Positions 22,028 through 34,029 of a stretch of DNA of 39,576 nucleotides are shown piece by piece. The position numbers and the translations under genes were made by a program. This DNA is from a virus: positions 1 to 39,576 of IMG/VR virus record IMGVR_UViG_3300021960_000193; one strand, given 5' to 3'. The first letter of the stretch is position 1. Every line of letters begins with the position of its first letter. The notes under the pieces are model-generated. The model did no database searches. It worked only from the letters and a program-made list of their open reading frames with translations, and was not told the DNA's origin.

Positions 22028-22028
22028 C

Positions 22029-22364
22029 TTAACGCATCAGAGCAAGTGCATCATCTTCAGAGAGACAATCTTCAGGCAGTTGGAGATTGCGAGCGCAAGA
22101 AACTGCATCGACAAAATTATCAAACTGTGCAAAGGTTTTCTGATTACCAACCCAGCAACCTTTGTACTCATAGATCATATACTCAACTGCAAAAACATCC
22201 AGTTTAGTGTTACGATCTACACTGTGCTTGATGTACACTTTACCGTCAGGACGAGTGTACTTGTCAAACACATTGGAGCGGAAAGTACGCTTAAAGTCAG
22301 TAGCAAACTCTGCGGTGAGATCAATGCTTTGAGCGAAGAGATTAGCGAAGTGAGTGTTGTTCAT
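22029..22364 (-). CDS. Hypothetical protein (111 aa) starting inside the repeat
   Basis: The only ATG near the start of this frame lies within repeat copy 5 and gives MNNTHFANLFAQSIDLTAEF. The core has KVYIKHSVDRNTKLDVFAVEY followed by a Trp-containing beta segment, and the C-terminus SEDDALALMR is acidic. Function unknown. The position of the start shows that the repeat can contribute coding sequence. Confidence 0.8.
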   Translation of the reverse strand: MNNTHFANLFAQSIDLTAEFATDFKRTFRSNVFDKYTRPDGKVYIKHSVDRNTKLDVFAVEYMIYEYKGCWVGNQKTFAQFDNFVDAVSCARNLQLPEDCLSEDDALALMR

Positions 22365-22395
22365 ACTACTAGGACACTTTAGGCGTCCCCCCTTT
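22362..22395 (-). repeat. Repeated leader element, copy 5
   Basis: Minus-strand AAAGGGGGGACGCCTAAAG, then TGTCCTAGTAGTATG. The ATG of the 111-residue gene is the end of the element. The preceding gene stops 8 nt upstream. Confidence 0.92.
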
Positions 22396-22402
22396 GAATC
22401 AG

Positions 22403-22543
22403 TTAGAACTTTGCATTGACTCCTATTACTTTTGCTTTCGGATTACGCGCAACTGCTGTATCCTTTGCATCCTGATAGTTTGCTGCTTGTACTTCTTCAG
22501 TGAAGACTTTTCCAGCAACGTATAACTTAACTTCGTATTTCAT
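22403..22543 (-). CDS. Conserved small protein (46 aa), MKYEVKLYVAGK family
   Basis: A 46-residue frame runs from MKYEVKLYVAGKVFTEEV to AKVIGVNAKF. It matches a very short beta-rich protein I recall in many cyanomyoviruses (MKYEVKLYV, an alanine-rich middle such as YQDAKDTAVARNP). The start overlaps the upstream stop (ATGA), showing translational coupling. Function unknown. Confidence 0.85.
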   Translation of the reverse strand: MKYEVKLYVAGKVFTEEVQAANYQDAKDTAVARNPKAKVIGVNAKF

Positions 22544-22704
22544 ACAGAGGGATTAACAGAGATTTCTTTGATGTTGAGTCCACAGAGTTGATTGTAGACA
22601 CGATTCAGTATAAGTTTGTCCGCAGTCTTTGCTTTGGATTTCTCATACCAAATGGTCACACATCCGTCGTTGGTTTCAACTTGAACGCGATAGTTTTTAG
22701 TCAT
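22540..22704 (-). CDS. Small hypothetical protein (54 aa)
   Basis: A 54-residue frame begins MTKNYRVQVETNDGCVTIWY and ends NIKEISVNPSV. It is linked by ATGA overlaps to the 20-residue membrane peptide upstream and to the 46-residue gene downstream, forming a coupled chain. Beta-strand pattern at the N-terminus, basic middle. Function unknown. Confidence 0.78.
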   Translation of the reverse strand: MTKNYRVQVETNDGCVTIWYEKSKAKTADKLILNRVYNQLCGLNIKEISVNPSV

Positions 22705-22763
22705 TTGTTAAGCGGAGTGAAGAACCAAAGAATAATTAAAGAACCAAGGATTAGAGTTGTCAT
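22701..22763 (-). CDS. Membrane micropeptide (20 aa)
   Basis: The frame encodes MTTLILGSLIILWFFTPLNK, almost entirely one hydrophobic helix. Its ATG overlaps the stop of the 83-residue gene (TGATG), GGAGG lies 10 nt upstream, and its stop overlaps the next ATG. The coupling and ribosome site argue that it is translated despite its size. It is either a tiny membrane peptide or a translational link. Confidence 0.62.
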   Translation of the reverse strand: MTTLILGSLIILWFFTPLNK

Positions 22764-23014
22764 CAGTAGTGTGCCTCCGAAGAATCAACCAGATCAGAAT
22801 ACTTTGCAATGCCATCATAGCACTTCTTTGCCATCAGATCATCACGCTCATCAACATATTGCTTGAGAAACTCGAAGCAATACTTGATACGCAACTCAGG
22901 TGCGATTGCAGCGAGTTGTTGTTGCTGACGCTTCTGATAGTTTGCGTTGTATGCAAACATTTCACGATCTTCGAGAGAGATGTTGTGAAACTTGCGTTCG
23001 GTAGTGTTGTTCAT
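22763..23014 (-). CDS. Helical hypothetical protein (83 aa) starting inside the repeat
   Basis: The ATG at 23014 lies in the tail of repeat copy 6 and gives MNNTTERKFHNISLEDREMF. A long in-frame extension through the repeat (to 23056) is rejected. The middle is Gln-rich (YQKRQQQQLAAIAPELRIKY) and the rest charged and helical. The same N-terminal MNNT occurs in the otherwise unrelated 111-residue protein at 22029. Function unknown. Confidence 0.78.
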   Translation of the reverse strand: MNNTTERKFHNISLEDREMFAYNANYQKRQQQQLAAIAPELRIKYCFEFLKQYVDERDDLMAKKCYDGIAKYSDLVDSSEAHY

Positions 23015-23045
23015 ATTACTAGGACACTTTAGGCGTCCCCCCTTT
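23012..23045 (-). repeat. Repeated leader element, copy 6
   Basis: Minus-strand AAAGGGGGGACGCCTAAAG, then TGTCCTAGTAATATG. Nearly identical to copy 5, with the start codon of the downstream gene at its end. Confidence 0.92.
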
Positions 23046-23048
23046 GCA

Positions 23049-23246
23049 TTAGTCAAGATCTTTGCGAAGATATTCTACAATTCTTGAGAGATCTTCGATT
23101 GCAGTGTTCATTGCAGATTTAGAATAACCAGTCGCAAAAGGATAGGTTTTTTCATAATCATCAGAGGTATTATCTACCGCATAGCATACATTCACTGCAT
23201 TGGTGAGACTATCAATCACTCGGATCAGTTTATCATCAATTTGCAT
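23049..23246 (-). CDS. Small hypothetical protein (65 aa)
   Basis: The ATG at 23246 has GGAGG at 6-nt spacing and gives MQIDDKLIRVIDSLTNAVNV. The ATG just before it (23249) overlaps the upstream stop and is a possible alternative. Helical and amphipathic, ending IVEYLRKDLD. Function unknown. Confidence 0.75.
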   Translation of the reverse strand: MQIDDKLIRVIDSLTNAVNVCYAVDNTSDDYEKTYPFATGYSKSAMNTAIEDLSRIVEYLRKDLD

Positions 23247-23248
23247 CA

Positions 23249-23437
23249 TCAACCTCCGAACATTTCATCAAAGAGAGGAGTTTCGTCAAATTGTTTCATT
23301 TCACGAAGTGCAACAAGGTGCTGAATGTGTGCGTTCATTGCATCAATTTCTCGCTGCAACTTTTCCTTCTTGAAGTTAATCTCCATGATGGAGCGGTTAA
23401 TCTCAACTCGGTCCATTTGTGCGTTAGTGTCATTCAT
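23249..23437 (-). CDS. Coiled-coil protein (62 aa) starting inside the repeat
   Basis: Starts in repeat copy 7 as MNDTNAQMDRVEINRSIMEI; MDRVEI (23416) is an alternative start. Residues 8-48 have a strong coiled-coil pattern (FKKEKLQREIDAMNAHIQHL). The C-terminus ETPLFDEMFGG is coupled to the next gene. Probably an oligomerising small protein; function unknown. Confidence 0.78.
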   Translation of the reverse strand: MNDTNAQMDRVEINRSIMEINFKKEKLQREIDAMNAHIQHLVALREMKQFDETPLFDEMFGG

Positions 23438-23468
23438 ACTACTAGCACACTTTAAGCGTCCCCCCTTT
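23435..23468 (-). repeat. Repeated leader element, copy 7
   Basis: Minus-strand AAAGGGGGGACGCTTAAAG, then TGTGCTAGTAGTATG. It matches copy 3 exactly over the core, including the mismatch in the right arm. The upstream stop codon touches its first base. Confidence 0.92.
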
Positions 23469-23557
23469 CAATCATCGTTGGTGAAGTGCATTAAAATATA
23501 ATTAACTCCCACACCGATGATAGAACCAAGAAGGAAATATAGAACGAAAGTTGTCAT
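23468..23557 (-). CDS. Membrane micropeptide (29 aa)
   Basis: The frame encodes one hydrophobic helix, MTTFVLYFLLGSIIGVGVNY, and a short polar tail ending FTNDD. The ATG overlaps the stop of the 67-residue gene (ATGA). Same style as the 20-residue peptide at 22701 (both begin MTT). Function unknown. Confidence 0.65.
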   Translation of the reverse strand: MTTFVLYFLLGSIIGVGVNYILMHFTNDD

Positions 23558-23757
23558 CCCCAAGCACTCATAAACTCATCAAGATGATACACATCATCTG
23601 TACTGGTTTCTTCAATCAACTCATCATAACTCATTTCTTTCAACATTTCCAGGTATTCTTCAGGAGTTGCATCATTTTCTGGATCGAAATCATCATGACA
23701 TAACCACACATATTCATTGTAAAGTGCGTCGATTAGTTGTTCTTTTGATACAGTCAT
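23554..23757 (-). CDS. Conserved acidic protein (67 aa)
   Basis: Begins MTVSKEQLIDALYNEYVWLC and continues HDDFDPENDATPEEYLEMLK, a pattern I recall in cyanomyovirus small proteins. Strongly acidic and helical. It overlaps both neighbours by ATGA junctions, in a four-gene coupled chain (23927 to 23468). Function unknown. Confidence 0.82.
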   Translation of the reverse strand: MTVSKEQLIDALYNEYVWLCHDDFDPENDATPEEYLEMLKEMSYDELIEETSTDDVYHLDEFMSAWG

Positions 23758-23927
23758 TTTGCTTCCATTTTGTATTCGTACTTTTCTACCATTCTATCAC
23801 ATCCTTGACACCCTAATGCACTCCAACTGAAATGATAAACTCTTTTAATTTCACCACAATGAGGACATTGAAGTAGTCTACCATTGTTTCCAGTTCTTGA
23901 GGTTTTCTTGACAGGAATGAAGTTCAT
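23754..23927 (-). CDS. Zinc-ribbon-like small protein (57 aa)
   Basis: The ATG at 23927 gives MNFIPVKKTSRTGNNGRLLQ, then two CxxC pairs, CPHC and CQGC, separated by 17 residues (GEIKRVYHF...ALG). This is a compact zinc-ribbon layout seen in conserved cyanophage proteins. A longer in-frame start at 23966 would overlap the 122-residue gene. Probably nucleic-acid or protein binding; no target is evident. Confidence 0.82.
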   Translation of the reverse strand: MNFIPVKKTSRTGNNGRLLQCPHCGEIKRVYHFSWSALGCQGCDRMVEKYEYKMEAK

Positions 23928-23935
23928 TGTATCAA

Positions 23936-24304
23936 TCAACGAGCGTAAAGATAGGAACCTGCCCAATCACAACGCTCAAACATTTGCTCACGAGATTCAA
24001 TAATCAACACATTGTAACGCTCACCTTTAGCAGGTGCTTTTACACTGGCAGGTTTATACACAGAACCAGTCTTCTTATCAATGAAAGCGTGAATACTGTC
24101 ACGACGATCATCAATATGCATGAAGACTTTGTGATACTTACGACCCGAAGAATCAAGGGAGTAGAAGTAACCATCAGGAGCAGTCTGCTGGAGAGCATCA
24201 CACAGCATCAGACCATACTTAACAATGTTAAGTTCAATCGTGTTGCGGGCATCTTGCTGGGCAGCGTAGTCAGCGAAAGTTGTAGTCATTTCAGTTGTGC
24301 TCAT
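23936..24304 (-). CDS. Conserved hypothetical protein (122 aa)
   Basis: Two starts are possible: ATG at 24304, inside repeat copy 8 (MSTTEMTTTFADYAAQQ), or ATG at 24289 (MTTTFADY). The core has YGLMLCDALQQTAPDGYFY, RKYHKVFMHIDDRRDSIHAF and YKPASVKAPAKGERYN, a compact alpha/beta pattern I recall in a protein family shared by several cyanophages. A C-terminal Trp-Ala-Gly-Ser-Tyr-Leu-Tyr motif closes it. Function unknown. Confidence 0.82.
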   Translation of the reverse strand: MSTTEMTTTFADYAAQQDARNTIELNIVKYGLMLCDALQQTAPDGYFYSLDSSGRKYHKVFMHIDDRRDSIHAFIDKKTGSVYKPASVKAPAKGERYNVLIIESREQMFERCDWAGSYLYAR

Positions 24305-24335
24305 ACTATAAGGACACTTTGCACGTCCCCCCTTT
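24299..24335 (-). repeat. Repeated leader element, copy 8
   Basis: Minus-strand AAAGGGGGGACGTGCAAAG, then TGTCCTTATAGTATGAGC. GGGAC pairs with GTCCT with one wobble. It lies 3 nt after the upstream stop. Confidence 0.92.
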
Positions 24336-24338
24336 CAA

Positions 24339-25235
24339 TTACCATGCTTTCTCCATGATAAAGTTTGCACGGGAGAACTCTTCACGGTCAACTATTTTGA
24401 ACGTGCCAAACTTGTTGGTGATAACATAACCTTCATGCAGAGTTGGTTCATTACCAAGCAAGCAACCAATTTCATCAGTCTCATCAATGAAGCAGAACAT
24501 ATCATCCTTGATAGACTTAACGAGTCGCCACAATCTGATCAAGTTGATGTCACAATCGCATTTTTCTGCAATTTCATCTTCATTCACGGACTTTCCCTCA
24601 CGAATACAATCATTGATTGCCTTCTTGATCTTTGCTGCTTTAGTTTTATTCACGAACTCGCAGAGTGTAGACATCTGCTTGGCAAACTTACAAACTTCAT
24701 ACAAATCTTCGCGGTAAGGATACAATTCCACCGAAGGTTGCACAAACAAACACTTTTTAGTGCTGATGAGTTTGGATTGCAAAGGAAATGCATATGCATC
24801 GCGCAGATCATACAATGCATTGTAAATCGTGTGAGGTGCGATGATAATATCCTGAACAACTATTTCAGGAAAGATGTAAGTGATCGTGTTGGGGCGAAAA
24901 CTATCACTACCGCCATACCCAATAAAATCACCTTGAATGATAGACTTTGTGCGAGGAAGACAATCAAAGCAAGCGTGAAGAATACGCGCAACTTTACCCT
25001 CATAGTGCGAATCAATTTCTGCATGAGAATGTGCAATGCGAATCTTTACTTTATTGAAGACTGCTTTAGTGCCTACAAAGAATCTACCAGTCGCAGGATT
25101 AGTGCCCCAAACAATAGCAGGAGCGCCATCCATCTTGGTGCTGATGAAACTATCTTGCTCACAAAACCAATCAAGAGGTGATAGATCACCAGTCAAGATT
25201 ACGTCTTCTGGGTGTTCAAGATGGAGATTCTTCAT
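24339..25235 (-). CDS. Ligase-like covalent nucleotidyltransferase (298 aa)
   Basis: Residues 32-39 read STKMDGAP, a KxDG motif I with candidate nucleotide-accepting Lys34. It is followed by GRFFVGTKAVFNK and, at 101-108, QGDFIGYG, which resembles motif III. Near the C-terminus HEGYVI (267-272) resembles motif IV and TFKIVD (278-283) motif V. The order and spacing fit the polynucleotide ligase / RNA ligase superfamily, though no extra domain is present. It lies between repeat copies 8 and 9. Its substrate (nicked DNA, cleaved tRNA or other) cannot be read from the sequence. Motif V has one Lys instead of the usual KxK. Confidence 0.7.
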   Translation of the reverse strand: MKNLHLEHPEDVILTGDLSPLDWFCEQDSFISTKMDGAPAIVWGTNPATGRFFVGTKAVFNKVKIRIAHSHAEIDSHYEGKVARILHACFDCLPRTKSIIQGDFIGYGGSDSFRPNTITYIFPEIVVQDIIIAPHTIYNALYDLRDAYAFPLQSKLISTKKCLFVQPSVELYPYREDLYEVCKFAKQMSTLCEFVNKTKAAKIKKAINDCIREGKSVNEDEIAEKCDCDINLIRLWRLVKSIKDDMFCFIDETDEIGCLLGNEPTLHEGYVITNKFGTFKIVDREEFSRANFIMEKAW

Positions 25236-25245
25236 TGCGTTTCAG

Positions 25246-25281
25246 TCTATACTATAGGGACACTTTATGCGTCCCCCCTTT
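25246..25281 (-). repeat. Repeated leader element, copy 9
   Basis: Minus-strand AAAGGGGGGACGCATAAAG, then TGTCCCTATAGTATAGAC. The hairpin is complete. The ATG of the ligase-like gene follows 10 nt later, after GAAACGCA-type sequence and without a Shine-Dalgarno site. Confidence 0.92.
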
Positions 25282-25284
25282 GTG

Positions 25285-25524
25285 TTAGAGAGGAAGTTTA
25301 GCGACAGATTTACCTTTGCGATGCTTCTCAATAAAGTTAATCGCAGATTGACGATTGCGACACTCTTTGATACATCTACCCTGATGAATGATTGCTAATT
25401 GTGTATCGCTCCCAATAATAGGCACAGCAGCATAACACAATGGGTCTTCATATTTGCCAACCATAAACCCTTGCTCTACAGGTTTAGGATCAAGAATGTC
25501 GCTCTTTTGTTGTATTAGTTTCAT
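25285..25524 (-). CDS. Small hypothetical protein (79 aa)
   Basis: Begins MKLIQQKSDILDPKPVEQGF and has a beta-alpha pattern with the basic end KHRKGKSVAKLPL. Its ATG overlaps the helicase stop (ATGA), so it is translated with the helicase and might be a partner; that is inference. No known domain recognised. Confidence 0.8.
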   Translation of the reverse strand: MKLIQQKSDILDPKPVEQGFMVGKYEDPLCYAAVPIIGSDTQLAIIHQGRCIKECRNRQSAINFIEKHRKGKSVAKLPL

Positions 25525-26732
25525 CGGCGGATCTCACTGATTGCTGGTTGCCCTTGATTGAACACAACATCAACAACTGCTTGCACTTTGCGAGCGGTGG
25601 AAATACCAACGCTGTCATAAGTGGGGATGCAAACCAATCCAAAGGTCTTGGACTTGTCACCCAAACGAATAACCCGACCGATAGACTGACTGATGCCAAT
25701 ATAGTCCATATTACGCATGAAGATGACTGCTTCTAGTCCATTGACGTTGATGCCTTCAGACAGAATACTGTGGTGGATTACAACAAACTTCTTGTCAGAT
25801 TGCTTGCCCCATGCATTGAGAGTCTCAAAGAATTGGTCACGATTGACCTTCTTACCATCAATGATTGCACCAGTCTTGGATGTAATCGTCATCCAAGAAT
25901 ATCCACGAAGTTGTAGTTGAGCGCAGAAGTCAGAGTTAGAAATAAGACCCATAATCTGCTTGGTTGTGCGAGCACAGATCAGAGTTTTGTCAATGTTGTT
26001 GTCATCAATCGTTTCCAGCAGATTGTCACTATCCTCTGCATACATTACCTTGCGACCCTTAACCAAAGGAAGTTGCTTGACTACAACTTTAGGAGGGAGA
26101 ATGTAACCCTGTTCAACAAGTTCAGGAGCAGGAACATTGCACAGAACCTGACCATAAACATCACCCCAATTCATTCCTGGTTTAGATGCAGTCAGAGAAT
26201 GTTTGGGAGTTGCAGTAAAGAAGTATGCACGATCTGCTGCATTGCTGAAGTATTCAGTAGCAGGGAAGAAGTTACGCTTAACACTATTGTGTGCCTCATC
26301 AAAGTAAATGTTATTGACCTCAATATCTGCTTGCTGAATACGCTCAAGCGAGTTGTAAGTAGTGAAGATGATTACATTCTCACCAGCAGTCCGTGCAGTA
26401 TTAGCAAACAGGTGAATCTGTTCGGGTTTGGTAGAAGAATAGTGATGAGTTTCACCACTATGAACATGCATCACATGAGTGTAGGAAGTATCAATAACTT
26501 CCAGAAATTCGCTGCACAGTTGTTCTGCAAGAAGAATACGCGGAGCAACAACAACAGTAGTAATGCCTTTCGTGATAAGATCGTGAGTGGTTTGAGTATC
26601 AACAATCATCGTCAGAGTTTTGCCACCACCAGTAGGAACAATGATCTGTCCCTTGTGGTAAGAAAACATGCGATCTAGGATGCGTTCTTGATGAGGGCGA
26701 AGAGTAATAGTCACAGGCAGGTAGTCTGACAC
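25521..26732 (-). CDS. SF2 DEAH-box helicase (403 aa)
   Basis: Motifs appear in order: LRPHQ near residue 11, Walker A PTGGGKT at 33-39, motif Ia VVAPRILLAEQ, DEAH (FDEAHN) at about 145, motif III TATP at about 173, and motif VI QSIGRVIR near 350. This is a full SF2 ATPase core of the phage-helicase/UvsW-like and restriction-helicase type. I start it at GTG 26732 (MSDYLPVTITLRP); TTG 26735 is possible, and neither has a ribosome site. A long hairpin stands just upstream. Likely role: DNA unwinding or branch remodelling in replication or recombination. Confidence 0.88.
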   Translation of the reverse strand: MSDYLPVTITLRPHQERILDRMFSYHKGQIIVPTGGGKTLTMIVDTQTTHDLITKGITTVVVAPRILLAEQLCSEFLEVIDTSYTHVMHVHSGETHHYSSTKPEQIHLFANTARTAGENVIIFTTYNSLERIQQADIEVNNIYFDEAHNSVKRNFFPATEYFSNAADRAYFFTATPKHSLTASKPGMNWGDVYGQVLCNVPAPELVEQGYILPPKVVVKQLPLVKGRKVMYAEDSDNLLETIDDNNIDKTLICARTTKQIMGLISNSDFCAQLQLRGYSWMTITSKTGAIIDGKKVNRDQFFETLNAWGKQSDKKFVVIHHSILSEGINVNGLEAVIFMRNMDYIGISQSIGRVIRLGDKSKTFGLVCIPTYDSVGISTARKVQAVVDVVFNQGQPAISEIRR

Positions 26733-26746
26733 CAAAGAATAATAAT

Positions 26747-26776
26747 AGCACCCTTACAGACGATTGTAAAGGGTGC
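26747..26776 (-). promoter_or_regulatory. Hairpin in the helicase leader
   Basis: On the minus strand GCACCCTTTACA and TGTAAGGGTGC pair over 11 bp with a one-base bulge and a 6-nt loop. It is followed by ATTATTATTCTTTG and the helicase start. It may be an attenuator or terminator between repeat copy 10 and the gene. Confidence 0.7.
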
Positions 26777-26783
26777 TGACGAC

Positions 26784-26819
26784 GCTTATACTATAAAGAC
26801 ACTTTGCGCGTCCCCCCTT
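26784..26819 (-). repeat. Repeated leader element, copy 10
   Basis: Minus strand: AAGGGGGGACGCGCAAAG, then TGTCTTTATAGTATAAGC. Its first base touches the methyltransferase stop codon (TGA). Unlike other copies it is followed by a second, larger hairpin. Confidence 0.88.
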
Positions 26820-27772
26820 CAAGTCATCGCAGCAATGAGAGGACTTGTGGTTTCTTGTATTGATTTCTCAAATAACATTTTACCATCGTTGTTAATATCA
26901 AATAAAATGTAATTTCTATTTGTAGCAATAGCACTTCTGCCTACAGTTCCAGACCCAGCACAAGGATCTAAAACAATAGAGTTTTGATTACTGAACATAT
27001 TAACAATTCTATTGAGAAGTGCAACAGGTTTCTGTGTTGCATAATCCATCTTCTCAACTCCTTGGATCTGTTTTATATCAGACCATACATCTTTAACAGG
27101 GATTCCATCCATCTCATCCAGAAACTTCTTCACTCTAGGAATACCTGTGATTGGTGAATACTCAAGGCGATTGTCATCATGAAGCATCTGCATCCTCTCT
27201 TTTGAGATATGCCATTGGAGATCATTTCCATTCCATTCATATCTCAAATTGGGGCGAGATACAACATTAGGTTGACGATTAACCAATGCAGATGTGTTGT
27301 ATTTCATATTGCGAATGGGACACATCTTTGCCTTCTTCACAGTATCATCATCGTATGCTTTGTGTTCAGAATTGTAGATAGATTCTGCACCTTTCTGATA
27401 AACAATGATCGTATCGTGATTGCGTTGGAGTTGCTTTTTTGACTTGTGGTTGCCTCCAGAGATCCAAACAATCTCATTCTTAAATCTTTTCTCACCAAAG
27501 ATATCATCAAGAACAATACGAATATGATGAGAAATCTTTGGTTCTACATGCACAACAATGTTGCCACAATCGGTGAGAACGCGATGACATTCTTCCAGCA
27601 AAGGACGCATCAACAATTCGCGATAATCCGCACTGGAAGTAAATCTATCATCAAAGTGATAGAAATCTCTTCCAGTGCAATAAGGTGGATCAATATAAAT
27701 TAGATCCACCGTGTTTGCATCAACTTGCTTCAGCAGTTCTCTACTGTCACCGATAGTGTATTCATTTAGCAT
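26819..27772 (-). CDS. Beta-class DNA adenine-N6 (or cytosine-N4) methyltransferase (317 aa)
   Basis: Motif IV DPPY (residues 28-31, IYIDPPYCTGRDFYHF) precedes motif I LDPCAGSGTVG (about 268-278), which is the beta-class order. Between them lies a large target-recognition region with EIVWISGGNHKSKKQL and a TQKPVALLNRIV helix before motif I. The ATG at 27772 overlaps the preceding nuclease-like gene by 11 nt. An in-frame TTG at 27784 is less likely. The pair suggests a modification enzyme tied to a cleavage activity. Target site not readable. Confidence 0.92.
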   Translation of the reverse strand: MLNEYTIGDSRELLKQVDANTVDLIYIDPPYCTGRDFYHFDDRFTSSADYRELLMRPLLEECHRVLTDCGNIVVHVEPKISHHIRIVLDDIFGEKRFKNEIVWISGGNHKSKKQLQRNHDTIIVYQKGAESIYNSEHKAYDDDTVKKAKMCPIRNMKYNTSALVNRQPNVVSRPNLRYEWNGNDLQWHISKERMQMLHDDNRLEYSPITGIPRVKKFLDEMDGIPVKDVWSDIKQIQGVEKMDYATQKPVALLNRIVNMFSNQNSIVLDPCAGSGTVGRSAIATNRNYILFDINNDGKMLFEKSIQETTSPLIAAMT

Positions 27773-28295
27773 TGTTGAGAGCAATCAGAACCTCCTTTGC
27801 GCGACCAGCATACTTTTTGCGGACAGATGCAGGGACAGAACCTACACAATATCCAGGCATATTCTTGTCTTCCAGTTCATAACTAGGAACAGCAAGAAAC
27901 TCCCAGTCAGAAATATCTTCGTGACCTTTAGGAATAATAAACAGTATAACATCAAATGAGTCTACTGCATAGCGAACCTGACCATTCTTTGCACCATTGT
28001 TTGCATTTTTGCCAGTGGTGCGGCGAGTCTGCTCCATGTGCAAAGTATTGCCACCGCGATACTTAACTTGGATACGCAGACCGTTAGAAGAAAGGCGGTC
28101 ATATTTCTCCTGCTGACCATCAAGGTCGTCAGGAGACTTGTCGTTTTCAATACCACATTCATCGCGCAACCATTGCGGGGCGATAATGCGTTCGGTTGGA
28201 AATGCAAGAAACTTGCCAATCTCTCGCGTGTCGCCTTCAGTGATGAGTTCTTCAAAACCGAGAGCAACGATTTCGGAAAGTGTAGTAACTCCCAT
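27762..28295 (-). CDS. Candidate PD-(D/E)XK nuclease, restriction-endonuclease-like (177 aa)
   Basis: A 177-residue protein with an N-terminal helical part, then KYDRLSSNGLRIQVKYRGGN (D66 and Q76-x-K78), a QTRRTTGKN segment and a hydrophobic strand SFDVILFIIP. This is the order expected for a PD-(D/E)XK core in which Gln replaces the usual Glu. The start has an excellent site, AAGGAGATCACTG before ATG. It overlaps the methyltransferase gene by 11 nt, as many restriction-modification pairs do. The assignment is from pattern only and needs structural confirmation. Confidence 0.55.
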   Translation of the reverse strand: MGVTTLSEIVALGFEELITEGDTREIGKFLAFPTERIIAPQWLRDECGIENDKSPDDLDGQQEKYDRLSSNGLRIQVKYRGGNTLHMEQTRRTTGKNANNGAKNGQVRYAVDSFDVILFIIPKGHEDISDWEFLAVPSYELEDKNMPGYCVGSVPASVRKKYAGRAKEVLIALNNAK

Positions 28296-28318
28296 CAGTG
28301 ATCTCCTTGTGTTTGTAT

Positions 28319-28352
28319 CTATTAGAGGGACATTTTAAGCGTCCCCCCCTTT
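28319..28352 (-). repeat. Repeated leader element, copy 11
   Basis: Minus-strand AAAGGGGGGGACGCTTAAA, then ATGTCCCTCTAATAGAT. It has seven G residues and the tail has lost the TATAAGC motif. It lies 5 nt after the upstream stop, and the downstream start has its own Shine-Dalgarno site. Confidence 0.85.
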
Positions 28353-28357
28353 GTTTG

Positions 28358-29533
28358 TCAAATTATTTCTTCTTCAGTATCAAATGCCATTTCAAATGGT
28401 TCATCTTCATCTTCAAGTTGATTCATGCACCAGATTTCCATATTCAAGTCACTCAACTTCTTGCGATAACCATCAAGAATAGATGGTTGAATTACTTGAC
28501 CAATAGGTGCAAGAATGTTGTCTCTCCTTATCTGCCAAGAATCGTTAAGTCTTTTTTTGAATTTGATTCTAGACTCAACAATTTTCTTTGCATTGGTTGA
28601 GTTGTCTTTATTCCAGAGAAGAACTTTCACAGTCTTTGGTGGAGTTGGTGGCAGAACTTCTTCAAGAGGTGTTTTCTCTTTTGGATTTTCTCTCTCACAA
28701 ACTACTCTCAAAAGTCTGTCTGCATAAGTATAGCAATATCCATCATGATCCCTGATCGGCACAACAAAATAGTAGTTGTTGTCATCCTCAACGTTGTGAG
28801 GTTTCCAATCATCAGATTCTGCGATGAAATTATCAAGATCTTCTTCGTTGTTGTTGATAGTTAATTGACCAACAACTTGTTCAGGATCCCGAAGAGAATC
28901 AAGAATCTTCGTCACAATTCTCTCAACAACTGCGGTGTTTTCATTATAACGAGTATAGCAACCCATGTGCTTCAAAAGATTCCTGACAAAAGATCTTGTG
29001 ATGAGATCAAAGTCTTCATGCCTATCTTTTTCTACTTCAATAATATTGACACACGCAGTTTCAAACTGATAGTCTTTCGTATCTTCAACGATAGGACCAT
29101 AAACATTTCCCCACATCGCTGCCATTGTTAGAATGGAATGATCTAGGAAAGAATTATAAATCCCACCATTAGAAGGAAAAACTCTTTTATATTTTGCAGA
29201 AGGAACTTCTTCAATCACTGGATTCTCACGACAAACTTTAAGTGTGTGCCGTCGATCAAATACTTCCTTCCAATCACCAATGGGCATAAAAGGTATGGGC
29301 CAAGATGTACGATCCCACCCGTAGAAGAGAGAACCTTTGAGTCCTACAATCTTCTGGGAAACTGTATCTTTGGTGCCGCGAACTGTATTATCCCCAACAC
29401 GGAGTTCGCTTACCTTACTCATTTCCAAATTATCTAATTCAAGAAATGGAAAGTTAATGTAAATATCGTCTTCTGAATTGACGACAAGATCTTCGATGGA
29501 GAAGTTGCTTCCCCAAGTTAATTTTTTTGCCAT
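28358..29533 (-). CDS. Uncharacterised 391-aa protein, possible ParB/sulfiredoxin-like segment
   Basis: Begins MAKKLTWGSNFSIEDLVVNS after a good site (GAGGTAATT) and a consensus promoter. Residues about 65-115 contain LFYGWDRTSWPIPFMPIGDW and EVFDRRHTLKVCRENP, which faintly recall the PI...GRHR core of ParB-like domains. The middle has a helical segment and the C-terminus is basic then very acidic (EDEDEPFEMAFDTEEEII). I do not recognise the family with confidence. Its neighbours are the nuclease/methyltransferase pair and the internal-head-protein candidate. Confidence 0.78.
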   Translation of the reverse strand: MAKKLTWGSNFSIEDLVVNSEDDIYINFPFLELDNLEMSKVSELRVGDNTVRGTKDTVSQKIVGLKGSLFYGWDRTSWPIPFMPIGDWKEVFDRRHTLKVCRENPVIEEVPSAKYKRVFPSNGGIYNSFLDHSILTMAAMWGNVYGPIVEDTKDYQFETACVNIIEVEKDRHEDFDLITRSFVRNLLKHMGCYTRYNENTAVVERIVTKILDSLRDPEQVVGQLTINNNEEDLDNFIAESDDWKPHNVEDDNNYYFVVPIRDHDGYCYTYADRLLRVVCERENPKEKTPLEEVLPPTPPKTVKVLLWNKDNSTNAKKIVESRIKFKKRLNDSWQIRRDNILAPIGQVIQPSILDGYRKKLSDLNMEIWCMNQLEDEDEPFEMAFDTEEEII

Positions 29534-29582
29534 AATTACCTCGTAATAAAGAAACCTTGACTATGCAGGTCTCATGCATTAT

Positions 29583-29611
29583 ATAGTATCACATTATTTC
29601 AAACTTGTCAA
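29583..29611 (-). promoter_or_regulatory. Sigma70-type promoter for the 391-aa gene
   Basis: The minus strand has TTGACA (29611-29606), 17 nt and TACTAT (29588-29583). The -35 box starts immediately after the TAG stop of the basic-protein gene. The leader to the ATG at 29533 is about 45 nt. Confidence 0.78.
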
Positions 29612-30139
29612 CTATTTGGAGGTGAACTTGTGCTTCAGTTCTTTCTCCGACTTCTTACCAGTTGATTGAAGAACCAAATCACGCAGAACTCTCTCACCTT
29701 TCTTATACAATGCTTTGCGCTCTTTGGTAGTCTTACCAGATGCTTTTTGTGGTTTATACTTTGGCGAAACTTCAGTCTTTTTCTTCTTCGCAAGCAGTTC
29801 AGATGCAGACTTTGTTTTCTCTCCTGCTTCTCTTCTCTTGCGCTCCAAGTATGCTTTGCGTTGTGCTTCTTTTGCACTCAATGCAGCAGATCCTCTTTCC
29901 TTTTCAGGTTGCTGAACTCTGGTCTCTGTCTTACGTTGAGTGCCAATATCTTTGCGTGGTTTGTATTCCTTTGCGGGTTCCATCTTACCACCGCCTGCTG
30001 CTTTCATTCTGCGGCGTTCTGGTGCTGTTTTCTTACGTTCTGCACCAATTCTTCCACCTTCACCAGTACGACGGATTTGTGATGATCCCATCACGTCCTT
30101 GTCGTATGCTTCGGCAATAAATTGTGAGAAGGTTTTCAT
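29612..30139 (-). CDS. Basic protein with T4-type capsid-targeting N-terminus (175 aa)
   Basis: The first 11 residues, MKTFSQFIAEA, match the capsid-targeting peptide of T4 internal proteins (MKTYQEFIAEA) at 8 of 11 positions. The I-A-E tripeptide of the gp21 prohead-protease cleavage site is kept, predicting a cut after Glu10. The rest is rich in Lys, Arg and Ala (RKAYLERKRREAGEKTKS), suited to DNA binding inside a head. It has its own promoter behind a strong hairpin. Likely role: an internal head protein packaged with the DNA and possibly injected. Internal proteins are not retained in sequence between phages, so the rest cannot be matched. Confidence 0.72.
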   Translation of the reverse strand: MKTFSQFIAEAYDKDVMGSSQIRRTGEGGRIGAERKKTAPERRRMKAAGGGKMEPAKEYKPRKDIGTQRKTETRVQQPEKERGSAALSAKEAQRKAYLERKRREAGEKTKSASELLAKKKKTEVSPKYKPQKASGKTTKERKALYKKGERVLRDLVLQSTGKKSEKELKHKFTSK

Positions 30140-30159
30140 TTGATTGCTTAACTATTCCT

Positions 30160-30188
30160 ATAGTATATTTAGATATGGGAAAAGTCAA
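30160..30188 (-). promoter_or_regulatory. Sigma70-type promoter for the internal-protein candidate
   Basis: The minus strand has TTGACT (30188-30183), 17 nt and TACTAT (30165-30160). It follows the hairpin at 30191-30218 by 2 nt, so terminator and promoter form a compact joint. The ATG at 30139 is about 20 nt downstream. Confidence 0.75.
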
Positions 30189-30190
30189 TA

Positions 30191-30218
30191 GGGGACAACC
30201 AGTTTCCTGACTGTCCCC
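30191..30218 (-). terminator. 12-bp hairpin with GAAA tetraloop between transcription units
   Basis: On the minus strand GGGGACAGTCAG and CTGGTTGTCCCC form a 12-bp stem (two G-T wobbles) around GAAA. It follows the stop of the 68-residue gene. The tract after it is TATTGACTTTT rather than a clean T-run, so termination strength is uncertain. Confidence 0.7.
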
Positions 30219-30225
30219 ATTCTTA

Positions 30226-30432
30226 TCAATCTTCTTCTTTTAGTTTATCCATTGCAGACTTACTTACTTTACACACCAAGTCGTTGTCATAGAAATACTT
30301 AACACGTTCGCGGCGAGCAACAATAAGCATGTCATATTCTTCCTGTTGTTCTTTAGTGAAGCGGAAGTCTTGACGCCTCCAAGCATCACGAAGTTCTTTC
30401 AAGTGAGGCAGAACGTTCACAGTGTCAGTCAT
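30226..30432 (-). CDS. Conserved charged protein (68 aa)
   Basis: Begins MTDTVNVLPHLKELRDAWRR and is highly charged and helical, ending VSKSAMDKLKEED. Its ATG overlaps the stop of the acidic 43-residue gene (TGATG). It is the last gene before the hairpin at 30191. Function unknown. Confidence 0.8.
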   Translation of the reverse strand: MTDTVNVLPHLKELRDAWRRQDFRFTKEQQEEYDMLIVARRERVKYFYDNDLVCKVSKSAMDKLKEED

Positions 30433-30563
30433 CAGAAGTCCCAGTTAGAGTTAAGAAATGCTTCAAAGGTTTTGTTGTCATCTTCTTCAAAGAGTTCATC
30501 CTCTTCAATGAAGTCAAAGTTCACAAGTTCTTCAACTTGTTGTTCATCAAGGAAAGCGTTCAT
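30432..30563 (-). CDS. Very acidic small protein (43 aa)
   Basis: A 43-residue frame, MNAFLDEQQVEELVNFDF then IEEDELFEEDDNKTFEAF, starts 10 nt after repeat copy 12 and is coupled by TGATG to the next gene. About one third of its residues are Asp or Glu. Such peptides can be DNA mimics or inhibitors, but that is only a possibility. Confidence 0.72.
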   Translation of the reverse strand: MNAFLDEQQVEELVNFDFIEEDELFEEDDNKTFEAFLNSNWDF

Positions 30564-30572
30564 AAGTTCGGT

Positions 30573-30610
30573 GCTTACATAATTGGAACAGTTTAGGCGT
30601 CCCCCCTTTT
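30573..30610 (-). repeat. Repeated leader element, copy 12
   Basis: Minus-strand AAAGGGGGGACGCCTAAAC, then TGTTCCAATTATGTAAGC. The arms are more diverged (GTTCC), leaving a weaker stem. It overlaps the upstream stop by two bases. Confidence 0.85.
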
Positions 30611-30752
30611 AATTAACAAGGATTTGAATGTCTTTACATCCCTGTTCTCGTATTACTTTCTCCCAAAAGATTGCATCATCAATCTTGAGAAATGTCGCTG
30701 TTTGAGTTGAGAATCCTTTCTTTTTCGGTTTTTGGTATTTCACTTGGTACAT
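30609..30752 (-). CDS. Conserved small basic protein (47 aa), overlapping frame
   Basis: A 47-residue frame begins MYQVKYQKPKKKGFSTQTAT and ends CKDIQILVN, with AIFWEKVIREQG in the middle. It resembles short proteins of the form M.VKY..PKK.G.ST that I recall in cyanophages. It overlaps the C-terminal coding part of the membrane-protein gene by 74 nt in another frame, unusually long even for this phage. Confidence 0.72.
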   Translation of the reverse strand: MYQVKYQKPKKKGFSTQTATFLKIDDAIFWEKVIREQGCKDIQILVN

Positions 30753-30921
30753 CATTCCAATGCCTAATTACTCCTGCAACAATGAAACAGTTAGTGATAA
30801 GGTAAGTAGCAAATATAGTAGTCCGTATAAGAGCAATATTGTCTGATTCTTTGTCACATTTTGATGCCTTCTCTCCTAGTGCTTTTGCCCACCATCTCCA
30901 TGCATTTTTCCTCTTCTTCAT
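30679..30921 (-). CDS. Small membrane protein (80 aa)
   Basis: Begins MKKRKNAWRWWAKALGEKAS, a strongly basic N-terminus, followed by one hydrophobic segment (IRTTIFATYLITNCFIVAGVI, without its first residue 20 long) and a polar tail. It resembles a conserved cyanomyovirus membrane protein. It overlaps the gene upstream by 68 nt and the one downstream by 74 nt. Function unknown; probably in the host inner membrane. Confidence 0.8.
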   Translation of the reverse strand: MKKRKNAWRWWAKALGEKASKCDKESDNIALIRTTIFATYLITNCFIVAGVIRHWNDVPSEIPKTEKERILNSNSDISQD

Positions 30922-31147
30922 ACATTGTCTGTCTTGATCTTACATATTTAAGTTCTTTCCACTGTTCACGATAACATACAACCAAAAGTCTATCATTACT
31001 GTGAAATGGAGTATGACCAATGTCATCACGATGTCTTGGCATGACTAGCATTTCAATCGTGACATAATCATTGTCTTTGAAATACACCCATCCCTTAACA
31101 TCATGTTTCCAAATTACATAATCATTGACCTCTGGTTCGTAACTCAT
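30854..31147 (-). CDS. Conserved hypothetical protein (97 aa)
   Basis: Begins MSYEPEVNDYVIWKHDVKGW and continues with VYFKDNDYVTIEMLVMPR, a beta-rich pattern I recall in cyanomyovirus proteins (DYVIW...GWVYFK). The C-terminus is charged. It overlaps the next upstream gene by ATGA. Function unknown. Confidence 0.82.
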   Translation of the reverse strand: MSYEPEVNDYVIWKHDVKGWVYFKDNDYVTIEMLVMPRHRDDIGHTPFHSNDRLLVVCYREQWKELKYVRSRQTMYEEEEKCMEMVGKSTRREGIKM

Positions 31148-31425
31148 ATAAATGCTGCTTCTAATGGATTTAGGTTTAGTTGCATAGCAGAATACGGAGT
31201 TGTATTCTTTATATCTACCTGATCACCTTGTTTGGTGGCATTGATAGGCGCATAATAGCATTGCTTTTTTGTGTCGTAGAATCCCCAGATTGTGCGAGTA
31301 GGTACACCATTGTTGTAGTCAAAACGAATACTACAACGTAACCATATTGCGACAATATTCCTCTTAAACTCTTCAAACTCATAGTGATAATTTTGTGGAG
31401 ATTCATGAGGAAAGTTTTCAATCAT
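31144..31425 (-). CDS. Conserved hypothetical protein (93 aa)
   Basis: Begins MIENFPHESPQNYHYEFEEF, followed by KRNIVAIWLRCSIRF and IWGFYDTKKQCYYAPINA. These features match a small cyanophage family as I recall it. Compact beta-sheet pattern. It overlaps both neighbours by ATGA. Function unknown. Confidence 0.84.
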   Translation of the reverse strand: MIENFPHESPQNYHYEFEEFKRNIVAIWLRCSIRFDYNNGVPTRTIWGFYDTKKQCYYAPINATKQGDQVDIKNTTPYSAMQLNLNPLEAAFI

Positions 31426-31661
31426 GTGGTAAATGCTTCAATAACTTGAGAATCCAGATCTTCTGCTAATTGATACGCACGAGAATTGAGAATGTTCTCT
31501 TTCAGATCTGTATAGTGTTGTTCATAGAAATTACCATTATCTTCACTGGTAATTAGATCAAAACATTCATCATCGTCTTCAGCAATTACATTCCAAATAC
31601 CGCCATATTCTGACTGTGGAAAGGGAACATAGTGTTCAACAATGTAGAGATACTTTGCCAT
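31422..31661 (-). CDS. Conserved hypothetical protein (79 aa)
   Basis: Begins MAKYLYIVEHYVPFPQSEYG and continues GIWNVIAEDDDECFDLITSE, a recognised cyanophage small-protein pattern. Acidic, alpha/beta. It is the first gene after an extended -10 promoter at 31685-31690 and is coupled to the next by ATGA. Function unknown. Confidence 0.84.
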   Translation of the reverse strand: MAKYLYIVEHYVPFPQSEYGGIWNVIAEDDDECFDLITSEDNGNFYEQHYTDLKENILNSRAYQLAEDLDSQVIEAFTT

Positions 31662-31684
31662 TTTCGTGTGTAAATTACATACTA

Positions 31685-31690
31685 ATTATA
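31685..31690 (-). promoter_or_regulatory. Extended -10 promoter
   Basis: Minus-strand TGATATAAT contains a perfect TATAAT (31690-31685) with the TG extension. The -35 position has only a weak TTGCGG at 17-nt spacing. The TGA of this motif is the stop of the gene at 31691. The leader to the ATG at 31661 is about 17 nt. Confidence 0.6.
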
Positions 31691-31834
31691 TCAGGAACAG
31701 TAAAACTCCGCAAGATAATAATCAACTGTGATCTCAAGTTTTGCTGCTTCCTCTTCAACCTCTTTCCAAAACTCTTCTGCTACTTTGTCCATTTCTGCTT
31801 TTTTAATCATTTCTTGGATACGTTTGGAGATCAT
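31691..31834 (-). CDS. Helical small protein (47 aa)
   Basis: A 47-residue frame begins MISKRIQEMIKKAEMDKVAE and continues as a charged, heptad-like helix (EEFWKEVEEEAAKLEI), ending LAEFYCS. Its ATG overlaps the stop of the membrane peptide upstream (ATGA). Function unknown. Confidence 0.74.
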   Translation of the reverse strand: MISKRIQEMIKKAEMDKVAEEFWKEVEEEAAKLEITVDYYLAEFYCS

Positions 31835-31944
31835 TTGAAAGTTGCCTCGTCTTTGGGTCTGATTACCTTAAAATAGTATATCAGAAGACTGGTGATTGTT
31901 GCAACCAGTGAGAGAAAGAGAGCGATTGCTAATGAAATAGTCAT
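31831..31944 (-). CDS. Small membrane protein (37 aa)
   Basis: MTISLAIALFLSLVATITSL begins one long hydrophobic helix with a short basic tail (YYFKVIRPKDEATFK). ATGA overlaps on both sides tie it to a five-gene chain from 32503 to 31691. Function unknown. Confidence 0.74.
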   Translation of the reverse strand: MTISLAIALFLSLVATITSLLIYYFKVIRPKDEATFK

Positions 31945-32102
31945 CGTATTTCTTTACTTGGTGGTTGCATCAGTCTATGAATTGCTTGCTCGTGTGCATC
32001 AAACATCTTTTGATCACGTTGAATTAGAAATACATTCCAACCAAGAATGACAGCAAACCCAATCATTCCTGCGAGAATATATTTGCGGTTGGTGTTAGTC
32101 AT
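31941..32102 (-). CDS. Small membrane protein (53 aa)
   Basis: Starts MTNTNRKYILAGMIGFAVIL, one hydrophobic helix after a short basic N-terminus, then a polar helix (QKMFDAHEQAIHRLM). Coupled by ATGA to the 134-residue gene upstream and to the 37-residue peptide downstream. Function unknown. Confidence 0.76.
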   Translation of the reverse strand: MTNTNRKYILAGMIGFAVILGWNVFLIQRDQKMFDAHEQAIHRLMQPPSKEIR

Positions 32103-32503
32103 GCTGCAAGTGCTCCAGAGGGGATTTCAACGATTTCGGGGCGTTTGTTGTCCTCAAACTCGTTCATATTGTAGCACACCCATTCACCATTGCGGAAGAT
32201 GTAGGAGTATTCTTCGCCAAAAGCAAGAAACACTTTCAGGTTCTTGTCAATACGAGGAGGGCAATCATCACCACGTTGAGAATAATACAGCGGACCTTGT
32301 GCAACAGTTTCATTATTGAAACCAGCATTAGTCCAAGCAGAACTCATATCACCACCGTCAATAAGTTCAGCAGCAAGTTCTTTGCTGTTGTAATGAGTCT
32401 TCAGGATGCGACCCAACCAAGAAGGATATCCATCCCAATGGTGATAAACAGACAGAATAGATTCATCTGCAAGTTGAATACCAATGCGGGAGCGAGTTGC
32501 CAT
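32099..32503 (-). CDS. Conserved phage protein (134 aa), MATRSRIGIQ family
   Basis: Begins MATRSRIGIQLADESILSVY and continues HHWDGYPSWLGRILKTHYNS, which matches a protein found widely in cyanophages and other phages (MATRSRIGI...S.Y.H.DGYP...G..L...Y). A mid-part ELIDGGDMSSAW and a Tyr-rich end follow. Likely a small enzyme or binding fold, but unassigned. It starts 10 nt after repeat copy 13, without a Shine-Dalgarno site. Confidence 0.88.
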   Translation of the reverse strand: MATRSRIGIQLADESILSVYHHWDGYPSWLGRILKTHYNSKELAAELIDGGDMSSAWTNAGFNNETVAQGPLYYSQRGDDCPPRIDKNLKVFLAFGEEYSYIFRNGEWVCYNMNEFEDNKRPEIVEIPSGALAA

Positions 32504-32513
32504 TGCGTTTGTT

Positions 32514-32549
32514 GCTTACACTACAGGGACACTTTGCGCGTCCCCCCTT
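32514..32549 (-). repeat. Repeated leader element, copy 13
   Basis: Minus strand: AAGGGGGGACGCGCAAAG, then TGTCCCTGTAGTGTAAGC. The stem is intact. The element begins inside the halogenase stop codon and is the last copy toward high coordinates. Confidence 0.92.
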
Positions 32550-34029
32550 AACCATACCTGACTTTTAGTGATTGTGAAAACTCATTGAGAAACTTGGAAT
32601 GGTGGGGTAAAGTCTTTCTCTTTTCATTTTTTTCAAAATAAAATTGTTTTAATACTTCTTCAGACTGATCATCATCCACTTCATCTCTTTTTTTACAAAC
32701 TTCAAATCCCAACTGACACAACCAAACTGACCAATTATGTCCAGTAAAGATGCCCATGCCTTTATTGGGTAGAGTATACTCATTCATCTTAAGATCATCA
32801 ACAAAAGACAACAATCTACTTGTTTCTTGATAATTATCTTTTACCCATTCCCAAAACTTTCCATCCCTTTGAGTATTCCAATAGTGCATATTAACAAAAT
32901 CAACAGAATCCTCAAAATAATATTTCATAGAGGAATTGAACACTGAAGGATCAACATCGGTAAAGAATCCAGTTCTAATTGGATTAGCAAGTTGCCAGAT
33001 TCCAGCACAAATTAAAGTGATTCCAGTGCTCTCTAAAGGTTCAATGAATCCAGCAGATAATCCAATAGAAATTACATTCCCCTGCCACATATTCTCATGA
33101 TAATATGGAGTCCAATCAATCACCTTAAGTGATTCTCTATCTACTCTATTATTCCAATATTTTACATAATAATCTTTTGCTTCTTCTATATCTGTAACTG
33201 ATCTATTGAATACCAACCCAGATCCAATACGACTGCGAACAGGTATGTTCCAAATCCACCCGTGATCTACAGCATCACAAATTACATAGGGATTTCTTTC
33301 TTTGTCAACATCATTATATGGAATGTGACCAGCAATAGCAGTGTCACAAAATAATCTATCTCTCAAATTAAGAGGTTGAGATTTAGGACTGATGACTCTT
33401 TTGAATCCAGTGCAATCAATAAACAAACTTGAAGTAATAACTGTACCATCTTCAAGAGTAATATTTTCTACATTATCATTATCAAATTTTACATTAACGA
33501 CTTCTTTCTTTATTAACGTAACATTTTTCCTTGATAGTAGTTTCTTCTGTAAGAATTTAACTAATTTTCCACAATCAATATGGAAAGCATAAACGTCAAG
33601 ATTATCTGGATCTACAGAATTATCAAAGACTGAAGACTCATACAGTTCAGTTGCATAAGTTTTATAGTCATAATGTTGATGCTTTGACCATAGATCTTGT
33701 AATTCAGCATTAAGTGGTTTAACGTGTGGAAAATAAAAAGGGTGCCAAATATCTTCACCATCTTTATGCCAGTTAGTGAATAAAATACCAGACTTTAATG
33801 TAGCATCTATTTCATTAAACCATTCATTGATTGGTATGCCACTATCATCCATAATATCTTTGAAAGATAATGTAGTTGCTTCACCAACTCCTACGGGATT
33901 TCCATCCTTCTTATCAATTACAACTATATCTACTCCAAGAGGAGCATTTTTACTCAAATATGCAGCAGTCAACCAAGCAGAAGTGCCACCGCCGACAATA
34001 GTTATTTTTTCTATTCTATTAGATTTCAT
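32548..34029 (-). CDS. Flavin-dependent tryptophan halogenase (PrnA-like, 493 aa)
   Basis: The FAD-binding motif GGGTSAWLTA is at 13-22, GVGEAT at 47-52, the conserved Lys at 79 (TLKSGILFTNW, equivalent to PrnA K79), and the halogenase signature WIWNIP at 258-263. The substrate-side motif GFIEPLESTGI lies at 327-337. All diagnostic residues are present and the length is typical (about 500). The enzyme chlorinates or brominates an indole substrate using reduced FAD, oxygen and halide; the phage would need a host flavin reductase. Relatives are known in cyanophages as auxiliary metabolic genes. It has its own promoter and terminator joint. Confidence 0.92.
   Translation of the reverse strand: MKSNRIEKITIVGGGTSAWLTAAYLSKNAPLGVDIVVIDKKDGNPVGVGEATTLSFKDIMDDSGIPINEWFNEIDATLKSGILFTNWHKDGEDIWHPFYFPHVKPLNAELQDLWSKHQHYDYKTYATELYESSVFDNSVDPDNLDVYAFHIDCGKLVKFLQKKLLSRKNVTLIKKEVVNVKFDNDNVENITLEDGTVITSSLFIDCTGFKRVISPKSQPLNLRDRLFCDTAIAGHIPYNDVDKERNPYVICDAVDHGWIWNIPVRSRIGSGLVFNRSVTDIEEAKDYYVKYWNNRVDRESLKVIDWTPYYHENMWQGNVISIGLSAGFIEPLESTGITLICAGIWQLANPIRTGFFTDVDPSVFNSSMKYYFEDSVDFVNMHYWNTQRDGKFWEWVKDNYQETSRLLSFVDDLKMNEYTLPNKGMGIFTGHNWSVWLCQLGFEVCKKRDEVDDDQSEEVLKQFYFEKNEKRKTLPHHSKFLNEFSQSLKVRYG

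What the first reader, a model, noticed from the sequence alone, without database searches (positions are those of the whole stretch)
26819..28295. Adenine methyltransferase overlapping a candidate PD-(D/E)XK nuclease: phage restriction-modification-like pair
A beta-class methyltransferase with DPPY and DPCAGSGT overlaps by 11 nt a 177-residue protein with a D...QVK core. Both lie in one cassette bounded by repeat copies 10 and 11. The pair could protect phage DNA while cutting host or competitor DNA, or the nuclease could be a self-marking endonuclease.
Basis: partly seen in the sequence, partly recalled or inferred. Interest (0 to 1): 0.7.

Follow-up and report, generated by a model that had tools for sequence, protein, structure and literature searches.

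The report
Cyanophage-carried restriction-modification gene pair
A virus of marine cyanobacteria carries its own DNA-cutting enzyme together with the enzyme that marks its own DNA as safe, and dozens of related wild viruses carry the same pair and sometimes exchange the cutter while keeping the marker, so it is probably a weapon against unmarked DNA (the host's or a rival virus's).

Summary
In a T4-like cyanophage fragment, a 177-aa protein (27762-28295, -) overlaps by exactly 11 nt a beta-class DNA methyltransferase (26819-27772, -). The 177-aa protein matches nothing in Pfam, PHROGs, NCBIfam, PADLOC or PDB sequences. A confident AlphaFold2 model (pLDDT 87) has the PD-(D/E)XK nuclease fold (I-Ssp6803I Z 11.9; Hjc, NhoI, PvuII, DpnI below it), and E35, D66, Q76 and K78 are invariant in 31 relatives. 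The pair lies on 53 uncultured viral contigs. Of 54 contigs with a close methyltransferase (at least 49% identical to a family member), 53 have the nuclease directly upstream, usually overlapping. Nuclease dN/dS is about 0.08. Many copies have their own sigma-70 promoter. In some phages the nuclease gene alone was replaced in place by a 37%-identical version while methyltransferase DNA stayed about 84% identical, so both versions very likely share one recognition site. The same slot holds an MjaI-family restriction enzyme in cultured phage S-SM2, and Syn19 carries an annotated R.RsaI-methyltransferase pair. Verdict: a phage-borne Type II restriction-modification system with a new, so far virus-only nuclease family. 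Activity, site and target are untested.

The parts
27762..28295 (-). 177-aa PD-(D/E)XK nuclease, the candidate restriction endonuclease; catalytic candidates E35 (codon 28193-28191), D66 (28100-28098), Q76 (28070-28068), K78 (28064-28062)
   Evidence: ORF; invariant residues; AF2 pLDDT 87 / pTM 0.82; fold matches; dN/dS
26819..27772 (-). beta-class (DPPY ... DPCAGSGT) DNA methyltransferase, 317 aa, most likely adenine-N6
   Evidence: Pfam N6_N4_Mtase 2e-40; PHROG 67; PDB profile matches EcoP15I Mod, RsrI, MboIIA, CcrM
27762..27772 (-). 11-nt overlap of the nuclease 3' end and the methyltransferase start (overlap conserved in most relatives; suggests translational coupling)
28332..28361 (-). 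sigma-70-like promoter TTGACA-18-TAAAAT (11 of 12) upstream of the nuclease
   Evidence: 14 of 32 loci have one with at most 1 mismatch, 0.075 expected from shuffles
28303..28308 (-). AAGGAG ribosome-binding site of the nuclease
   Evidence: sequence; the same in many relatives
28313..28357 (.). copy 11 of the 13-copy hairpin repeat (upstream border of the transcription unit)
26782..26826 (.). copy 10 of the same repeat (downstream border)
25521..26735 (-). flanking helicase gene (like the GC 36 helicase of S-SM2), one side of the cargo slot
29612..30139 (-). flanking conserved 175-aa gene, other side of the slot (68% identical in S-SM2, 51% in SynMITS9220M01)

Best explanation
A phage-borne Type II restriction-modification system. 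Shown by sequence or prediction: the methyltransferase motifs, the nuclease fold and active-site residues, the coupled operon, the co-inheritance, purifying selection on the nuclease, and in-place exchange of the nuclease under a constant methyltransferase. Inferred: the methyltransferase marks one short site on phage DNA (probably m6A), so virion DNA enters the cell already protected. The operon is then transcribed from its own host-type promoter early in infection, and the nuclease cuts unmarked copies of the same site in the cell, meaning the host chromosome and any co-infecting phage that lacks the mark. The patchy, exchangeable, cargo-slot distribution suggests that competition with other phages is at least as important as taking host nucleotides.
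For: MTase: Pfam N6_N4_Mtase 2e-40 with DPPY and DPCAGSGT. Nuclease model pLDDT 87; PD-(D/E)XK matches I-Ssp6803I Z 11.9, Hjc about 9, NhoI/Eco15I 7.6, HhaI 7.4, PvuII 6.4, DpnI 6.3; Foldseek best NhoI E 5e-4. E35/D66/Q76/K78 invariant in 31 sequences down to 26% identity. Pairing: 53 of 54 contigs with the close MTase have the nuclease immediately upstream, while the remoter MTases of the same scan have none. dN/dS about 0.08. Overlap of mostly 8-26 nt. Own sigma-70 promoter: 14 of 32 loci with at most 1 mismatch, 0.075 expected. Nuclease exchange: L069 against L018/L019, MTase 83-85% identical and flanks homologous, nuclease 37-39% with no DNA match; AU tests reject congruent trees. The same slot holds an MjaI-family REase in S-SM2. 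Syn19 has R.RsaI overlapping a MTase. D..QxK is catalytic in the SPARDA DREN nuclease, D41/Q60/K62 (PMC12205087), itself a fold match.
Against: No enzymatic or methylome data. No recognition site could be inferred. No relative was found in a cultured phage. The closest fold matches include a homing endonuclease and Holliday-junction resolvases, not only restriction enzymes. One MTase (L210) stands without a nuclease. Early expression is inferred from promoter-like sequence only, and the 32 loci counted are not independent of one another.
Confidence: 0.85

Rival explanations
1. An R-M pair whose main use is breakdown of the host chromosome to feed phage DNA synthesis (the chlorovirus model), replacing the T4 enzymes DenA/DenB/Ndd that cyanomyoviruses lack; exclusion of other phages is a by-product.
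For: Cyanomyoviruses lack denA, denB and ndd and may use an undescribed method of host DNA degradation (PMC2984593). Chlorovirus REases are thought to degrade host DNA early (PMC7019647). Early-type promoter.
Against: The pair is patchy and was found in none of 50,697 phage records at the sensitivity used, so it cannot be the general cyanophage solution. In marseilleviruses the R-M pair does not degrade host DNA but cuts rival virus DNA (PMC7253447).
Confidence: 0.35
2. Selfish or homing-like element: the nuclease cuts genomes that lack the cassette, so co-infection converts them and spreads the pair; the methyltransferase is its self-protection.
For: Best fold match is the homing endonuclease I-Ssp6803I, Z 11.9. 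The pair sits on either side of the helicase gene in different phages. The nuclease alone is exchanged in place.
Against: Homing enzymes do not need a methyltransferase; here the partner is almost always kept. Exchange by ordinary phage recombination explains the swaps. No conserved insertion site was found.
Confidence: 0.12
3. The nuclease is a DNA-repair or junction-resolving enzyme (Hjc-like), or a modification-dependent enzyme, placed next to a methyltransferase without being its restriction partner.
For: Hjc resolvases match at Z 7-9.6 and NhoI/DpnI (modification-dependent) at 6-8.
Against: A resolvase needs no methyltransferase partner and would not be expected as exchangeable accessory cargo in a slot where S-SM2 keeps an MjaI-type REase. 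A nuclease that cut the partner's mark would destroy the phage itself.
Confidence: 0.1

Closest known systems
Syn19_153/154 (R.RsaI endonuclease + DNA methyltransferase of Synechococcus phage Syn19)
   Same: T4-like cyanophage; about 170-aa nuclease gene first, overlapping an N6_N4 MTase; PADLOC REase_II
   Different: The nucleases show no detectable sequence relationship; MTases only distantly related (20%); annotated, and no test of its activity was found
SSM2_066, MjaI-family REase (PF09568) of Synechococcus phage S-SM2
   Same: A Type II REase in the same slot between the 175-aa gene and the helicase
   Different: Another REase family, and no methyltransferase annotated within the 13 kb looked at
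Chlorovirus and marseillevirus R-M systems (CviAI/CviAII; melbournevirus mel_015/016)
   Same: Virus-encoded adjacent REase and MTase; proposed to attack host or rival virus DNA (PMC7019647, PMC7253447)
   Different: Viruses of eukaryotes; relationship of the enzymes not tested here
I-Ssp6803I homing endonuclease and SPARDA DREN nuclease
   Same: Closest fold (Z 11.9 and up to 8.3); DREN uses D..QxK catalysis (PMC12205087)
   Different: Homing or Argonaute-guided collateral nucleases with no methyltransferase partner; sequence identity 10-15%
EcoP15I Mod, RsrI, MboIIA, CcrM methyltransferases
   Same: Same beta-class MTase domain
   Different: Remote; recognition site cannot be transferred

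Membership tests
Type II restriction-modification system | REase and MTase genes side by side, co-inherited | tested here: met
   53 of 54 contigs; overlap conserved
Type II restriction-modification system | nuclease fold with a complete active site in the REase | tested here: met
   AF2 pLDDT 87; PD-(D/E)XK matches; E35/D66/Q76/K78 invariant
Type II restriction-modification system | separate MTase with SAM-binding and catalytic motifs, and REase without helicase or translocase domain | tested here: met
   the adjacent helicase is a conserved phage helicase also present without the pair
Type II restriction-modification system | both enzymes recognise the same sequence | tested here: inconclusive
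   indirect: nuclease versions 37% identical alternate under one MTase
Type II restriction-modification system | cleavage of unmethylated DNA, blocked by the partner's methylation | not testable with these tools
   needs purified proteins
PD-(D/E)XK nuclease superfamily | alpha-beta fold with D...(D/E/Q)xK on adjacent strands | tested here: met
   D66 at the start of strand 67-69, Q76/K78 in strand 74-79
Known REase families (Pfam, NCBIfam, PADLOC) such as MjaI or RsaI | profile match | tested here: not met
   0 families for the window protein and no REase match for three relatives; no relation to Syn19 R.RsaI or S-SM2 MjaI-like
beta-class adenine-N6 MTase | DPPY N-terminal to the target-recognition region and a C-terminal SAM motif | tested here: met
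   alignments A2 and A7; N6 against N4 not tested
PD-(D/E)XK homing endonuclease (I-Ssp6803I type) | drives insertion of its own gene or intron at a long target site | not tested
   only fold similarity seen
Hjc Holliday-junction resolvase | structure-specific cutting of four-way junctions | not testable with these tools
   fold similarity Z 7-9.6 only

The most novel reading that the evidence does not exclude
T4-like cyanophages keep an exchangeable 'weapon slot' beside a helicase gene. In this family the cutter is swapped under a constant marker enzyme, so phages that share the mark form mutually tolerant groups that destroy unmarked rivals and the host genome. This would also supply part of the host-DNA degradation for which cyanomyoviruses lack the T4 genes (no denA, denB or ndd).
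Probability: 0.3. Interest if true: 0.75.

Novelty: new member of a known kind. Interest (0 to 1): 0.5.

Why it matters
It gives a sequence family, conserved active site and gene-order rule for a phage-carried restriction system that standard family libraries miss, found on more than 50 uncultured viral contigs. It makes two questions testable: how some T4-like cyanophages, which lack T4's host-DNA nucleases, might degrade host DNA, and whether marine lytic phages fight each other with restriction enzymes. In-place replacement of a restriction nuclease beneath a conserved methyltransferase is a clear natural example of partner exchange.

Tried and rejected
A first AlphaFold2 run with 16 close relatives failed (pLDDT 36.5); adding distant relatives solved it. 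PDB sequence searches with the nuclease gave only spurious spectrin/BAF/ACP hits. Plasmids: no real hit. Cultured phages: none. Bacterial genomes: a pattern scan of 84,980 species genomes found no nuclease relative, and profile searches of 386 + 387 + 286 genomes of three phyla found none; as a control the profile found L129, not in the model and about 35% identical to the query, at 1e-42. For the methyltransferase the nearest cellular hits of reasonable length are 27-29% identical. These scans miss distant forms, so 'virus-only' is provisional. The flanking repeats as mobile-cassette borders: rejected. Inferring the recognition site from composition was not attempted because a protected genome need not avoid it. 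The 391-aa upstream gene is next to the pair in only some relatives, so it was not counted as a part.

Full report
Setting. The window is a fragment of a T4-like cyanophage: megablast of its right part finds only Synechococcus/Prochlorococcus phages, cyanophages and two marine virus records, with the helicase region closest to SynMITS9220M01, Bellamy and S-SM2. All genes of the pair and its slot lie on the minus strand.

Observation. The 177-aa ORF (27762-28295) and the methyltransferase (ATG at 27772, end 26819) are real and overlap by 11 nt. The methyltransferase carries DPPY near its N-terminus and DPCAGSGT near its C-terminus, the beta-class order. Pfam gives N6_N4_Mtase at 2e-40, and a family profile matches EcoP15I Mod, RsrI, MboIIA and CcrM in the PDB. 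The 177-aa protein has no match in Pfam, PHROGs, PADLOC or NCBIfam and no real PDB sequence match.

Relatives. Successive scans of IMG/VR with the nuclease and with the methyltransferase gave 53 distinct contigs with both genes adjacent (one nuclease cut by a contig end), plus one contig that ends inside the nuclease. One of them (IMGVR_UViG_3300021961_001285) is identical to the window in this protein and may be the same or a nearly identical virus. Nuclease identity to the window runs from 100% to 26%. In the last methyltransferase scan every contig with a full-length methyltransferase at 49% identity or more had the nuclease directly upstream except L210, and none of the remoter ones had it (repeated). 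The genes overlap, mostly by 8 to 26 nt. Phage backgrounds differ: T4-like cyanophages, a phage with a RecA-like protein and a flap-type exonuclease (L129), and one with a PolIII-alpha-like protein and dUTPase (L105; names from reading the sequences). No match was found in 50,697 phage records at the sensitivity used.

Fold and active site. With a 31-sequence alignment AlphaFold2 gives pLDDT 87 and pTM 0.82; only the loop at 93-103 is poor. VIA-align places I-Ssp6803I first (Z 11.9, 3.1 A over 128 residues), then Hjc resolvases, SPARDA DREN, NhoI/Eco15I, HhaI, PvuII, DpnI and HinP1I; Foldseek puts NhoI first (E 5e-4). E35 (helix 23-47), D66 and Q76-x-K78 (adjacent strands) are invariant in all 31, as are G27, K28, R80, T90, R91, R92, G105, D115 and P137. 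A Q in place of D/E has precedent: D41, Q60 and K62 are the catalytic residues of the SPARDA DREN nuclease (PMC12205087).

Selection and expression. Among 18 close nucleases the median dN/dS is 0.078 with a maximum of 0.17: the protein is used. Upstream of the nuclease, 14 of 32 loci have a sigma-70 promoter with at most one mismatch within 100 bp, against 0.075 expected from shuffles; the window has TTGACA-18-TAAAAT. The loci are partly related, but distant members (L129, L169, L208) show it too. This suggests early expression by host RNA polymerase (inference).

Exchange of the nuclease. Nuclease and methyltransferase trees disagree. L069/L071/L073 have a nuclease 37-39% identical to that of L018/L019 but a methyltransferase 83-85% identical. 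At DNA level L069 and L019 align upstream (72%) and again from the last 60 nt of the nuclease through the methyltransferase and beyond (84%), with nothing in between. L069 and L074 align the other way round: pair only, no flanks. AU tests reject both congruent alternatives (p 0.016 and 1e-5). L183/L202 (methyltransferase 81%, nuclease 32%) look like another case. A nuclease can be replaced under a constant methyltransferase only if the newcomer cuts the site that is marked, so these divergent nucleases very likely share one specificity (inference).

Genomic slot. In the cultured phage S-SM2 the same interval, between a gene 68% identical to the window's 175-aa gene and the helicase, holds a protein that matches Pfam RE_MjaI at 1e-46. 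Syn19 carries an annotated R.RsaI endonuclease overlapping a methyltransferase, matching a PADLOC Type II REase but unrelated in sequence to ours. Restriction genes are thus recurrent cargo of T4-like cyanophages, and the window's pair is a new family of that kind.

Function. The best reading is a Type II R-M system carried by a lytic phage. Its DNA enters marked; the nuclease then attacks unmarked DNA. Two targets are possible and not exclusive. Host DNA: cyanomyoviruses lack denA, denB and ndd (PMC2984593), and chlorovirus REases are thought to degrade host DNA (PMC7019647). Rival phages: marseillevirus R-M cuts other viruses but does not degrade host DNA (PMC7253447). The patchy and exchangeable distribution leans slightly towards rivals.

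Limits. No activity, methylome, recognition site or expression data. Virus-only status rests on pattern-limited scans and about 1,060 bacterial genomes. The structure is a prediction.

Noticed in passing
window 19869-32556, 13 copies: A 45-nt element, read on the minus strand as GGGGGGACGC-loop-GTGTCCC followed by TATAGTATA, sits between many genes: a GC-rich hairpin directly followed by a -10-like sequence, perhaps a combined terminator/promoter punctuating the transcription units. Weakened forms occur around the pair in some relatives.
   Followed up: partly
L243:8556-9083 (Synechococcus phage S-SM2, SSM2_066): A clear MjaI-family REase (PF09568, 1e-46) in the slot beside the helicase, with no methyltransferase annotated nearby.
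   Followed up: partly
L242:2382-4200 (Synechococcus phage Bellamy gp86/gp87): An Eco57I-type methyltransferase next to a 187-aa protein with an IDG...QFKFK core, close to the helicases: possibly yet another restriction pair in this region.
   Followed up: partly
L239:6008-7308 (Synechococcus phage Syn19_153/154): Annotated R.RsaI endonuclease overlapping a DNA methyltransferase in a cultured phage, ready for experimental tests.
   Followed up: partly
L210:2926-3933: A family methyltransferase standing alone, without the nuclease upstream; possibly a remnant after nuclease loss.
   Followed up: no
L209:2063-2995: The nuclease ORF is open for an extra ~120 residues upstream, perhaps an N-terminal extension or fusion.
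   Followed up: no
window 32548-34029: Tryptophan-halogenase-like protein (PF04820, 4e-86; PHROG 2928) carried by a cyanophage.
   Followed up: no
window 2422-14610: A single 4062-aa ORF in the left part of the window, probably a very large structural protein.
   Followed up: no
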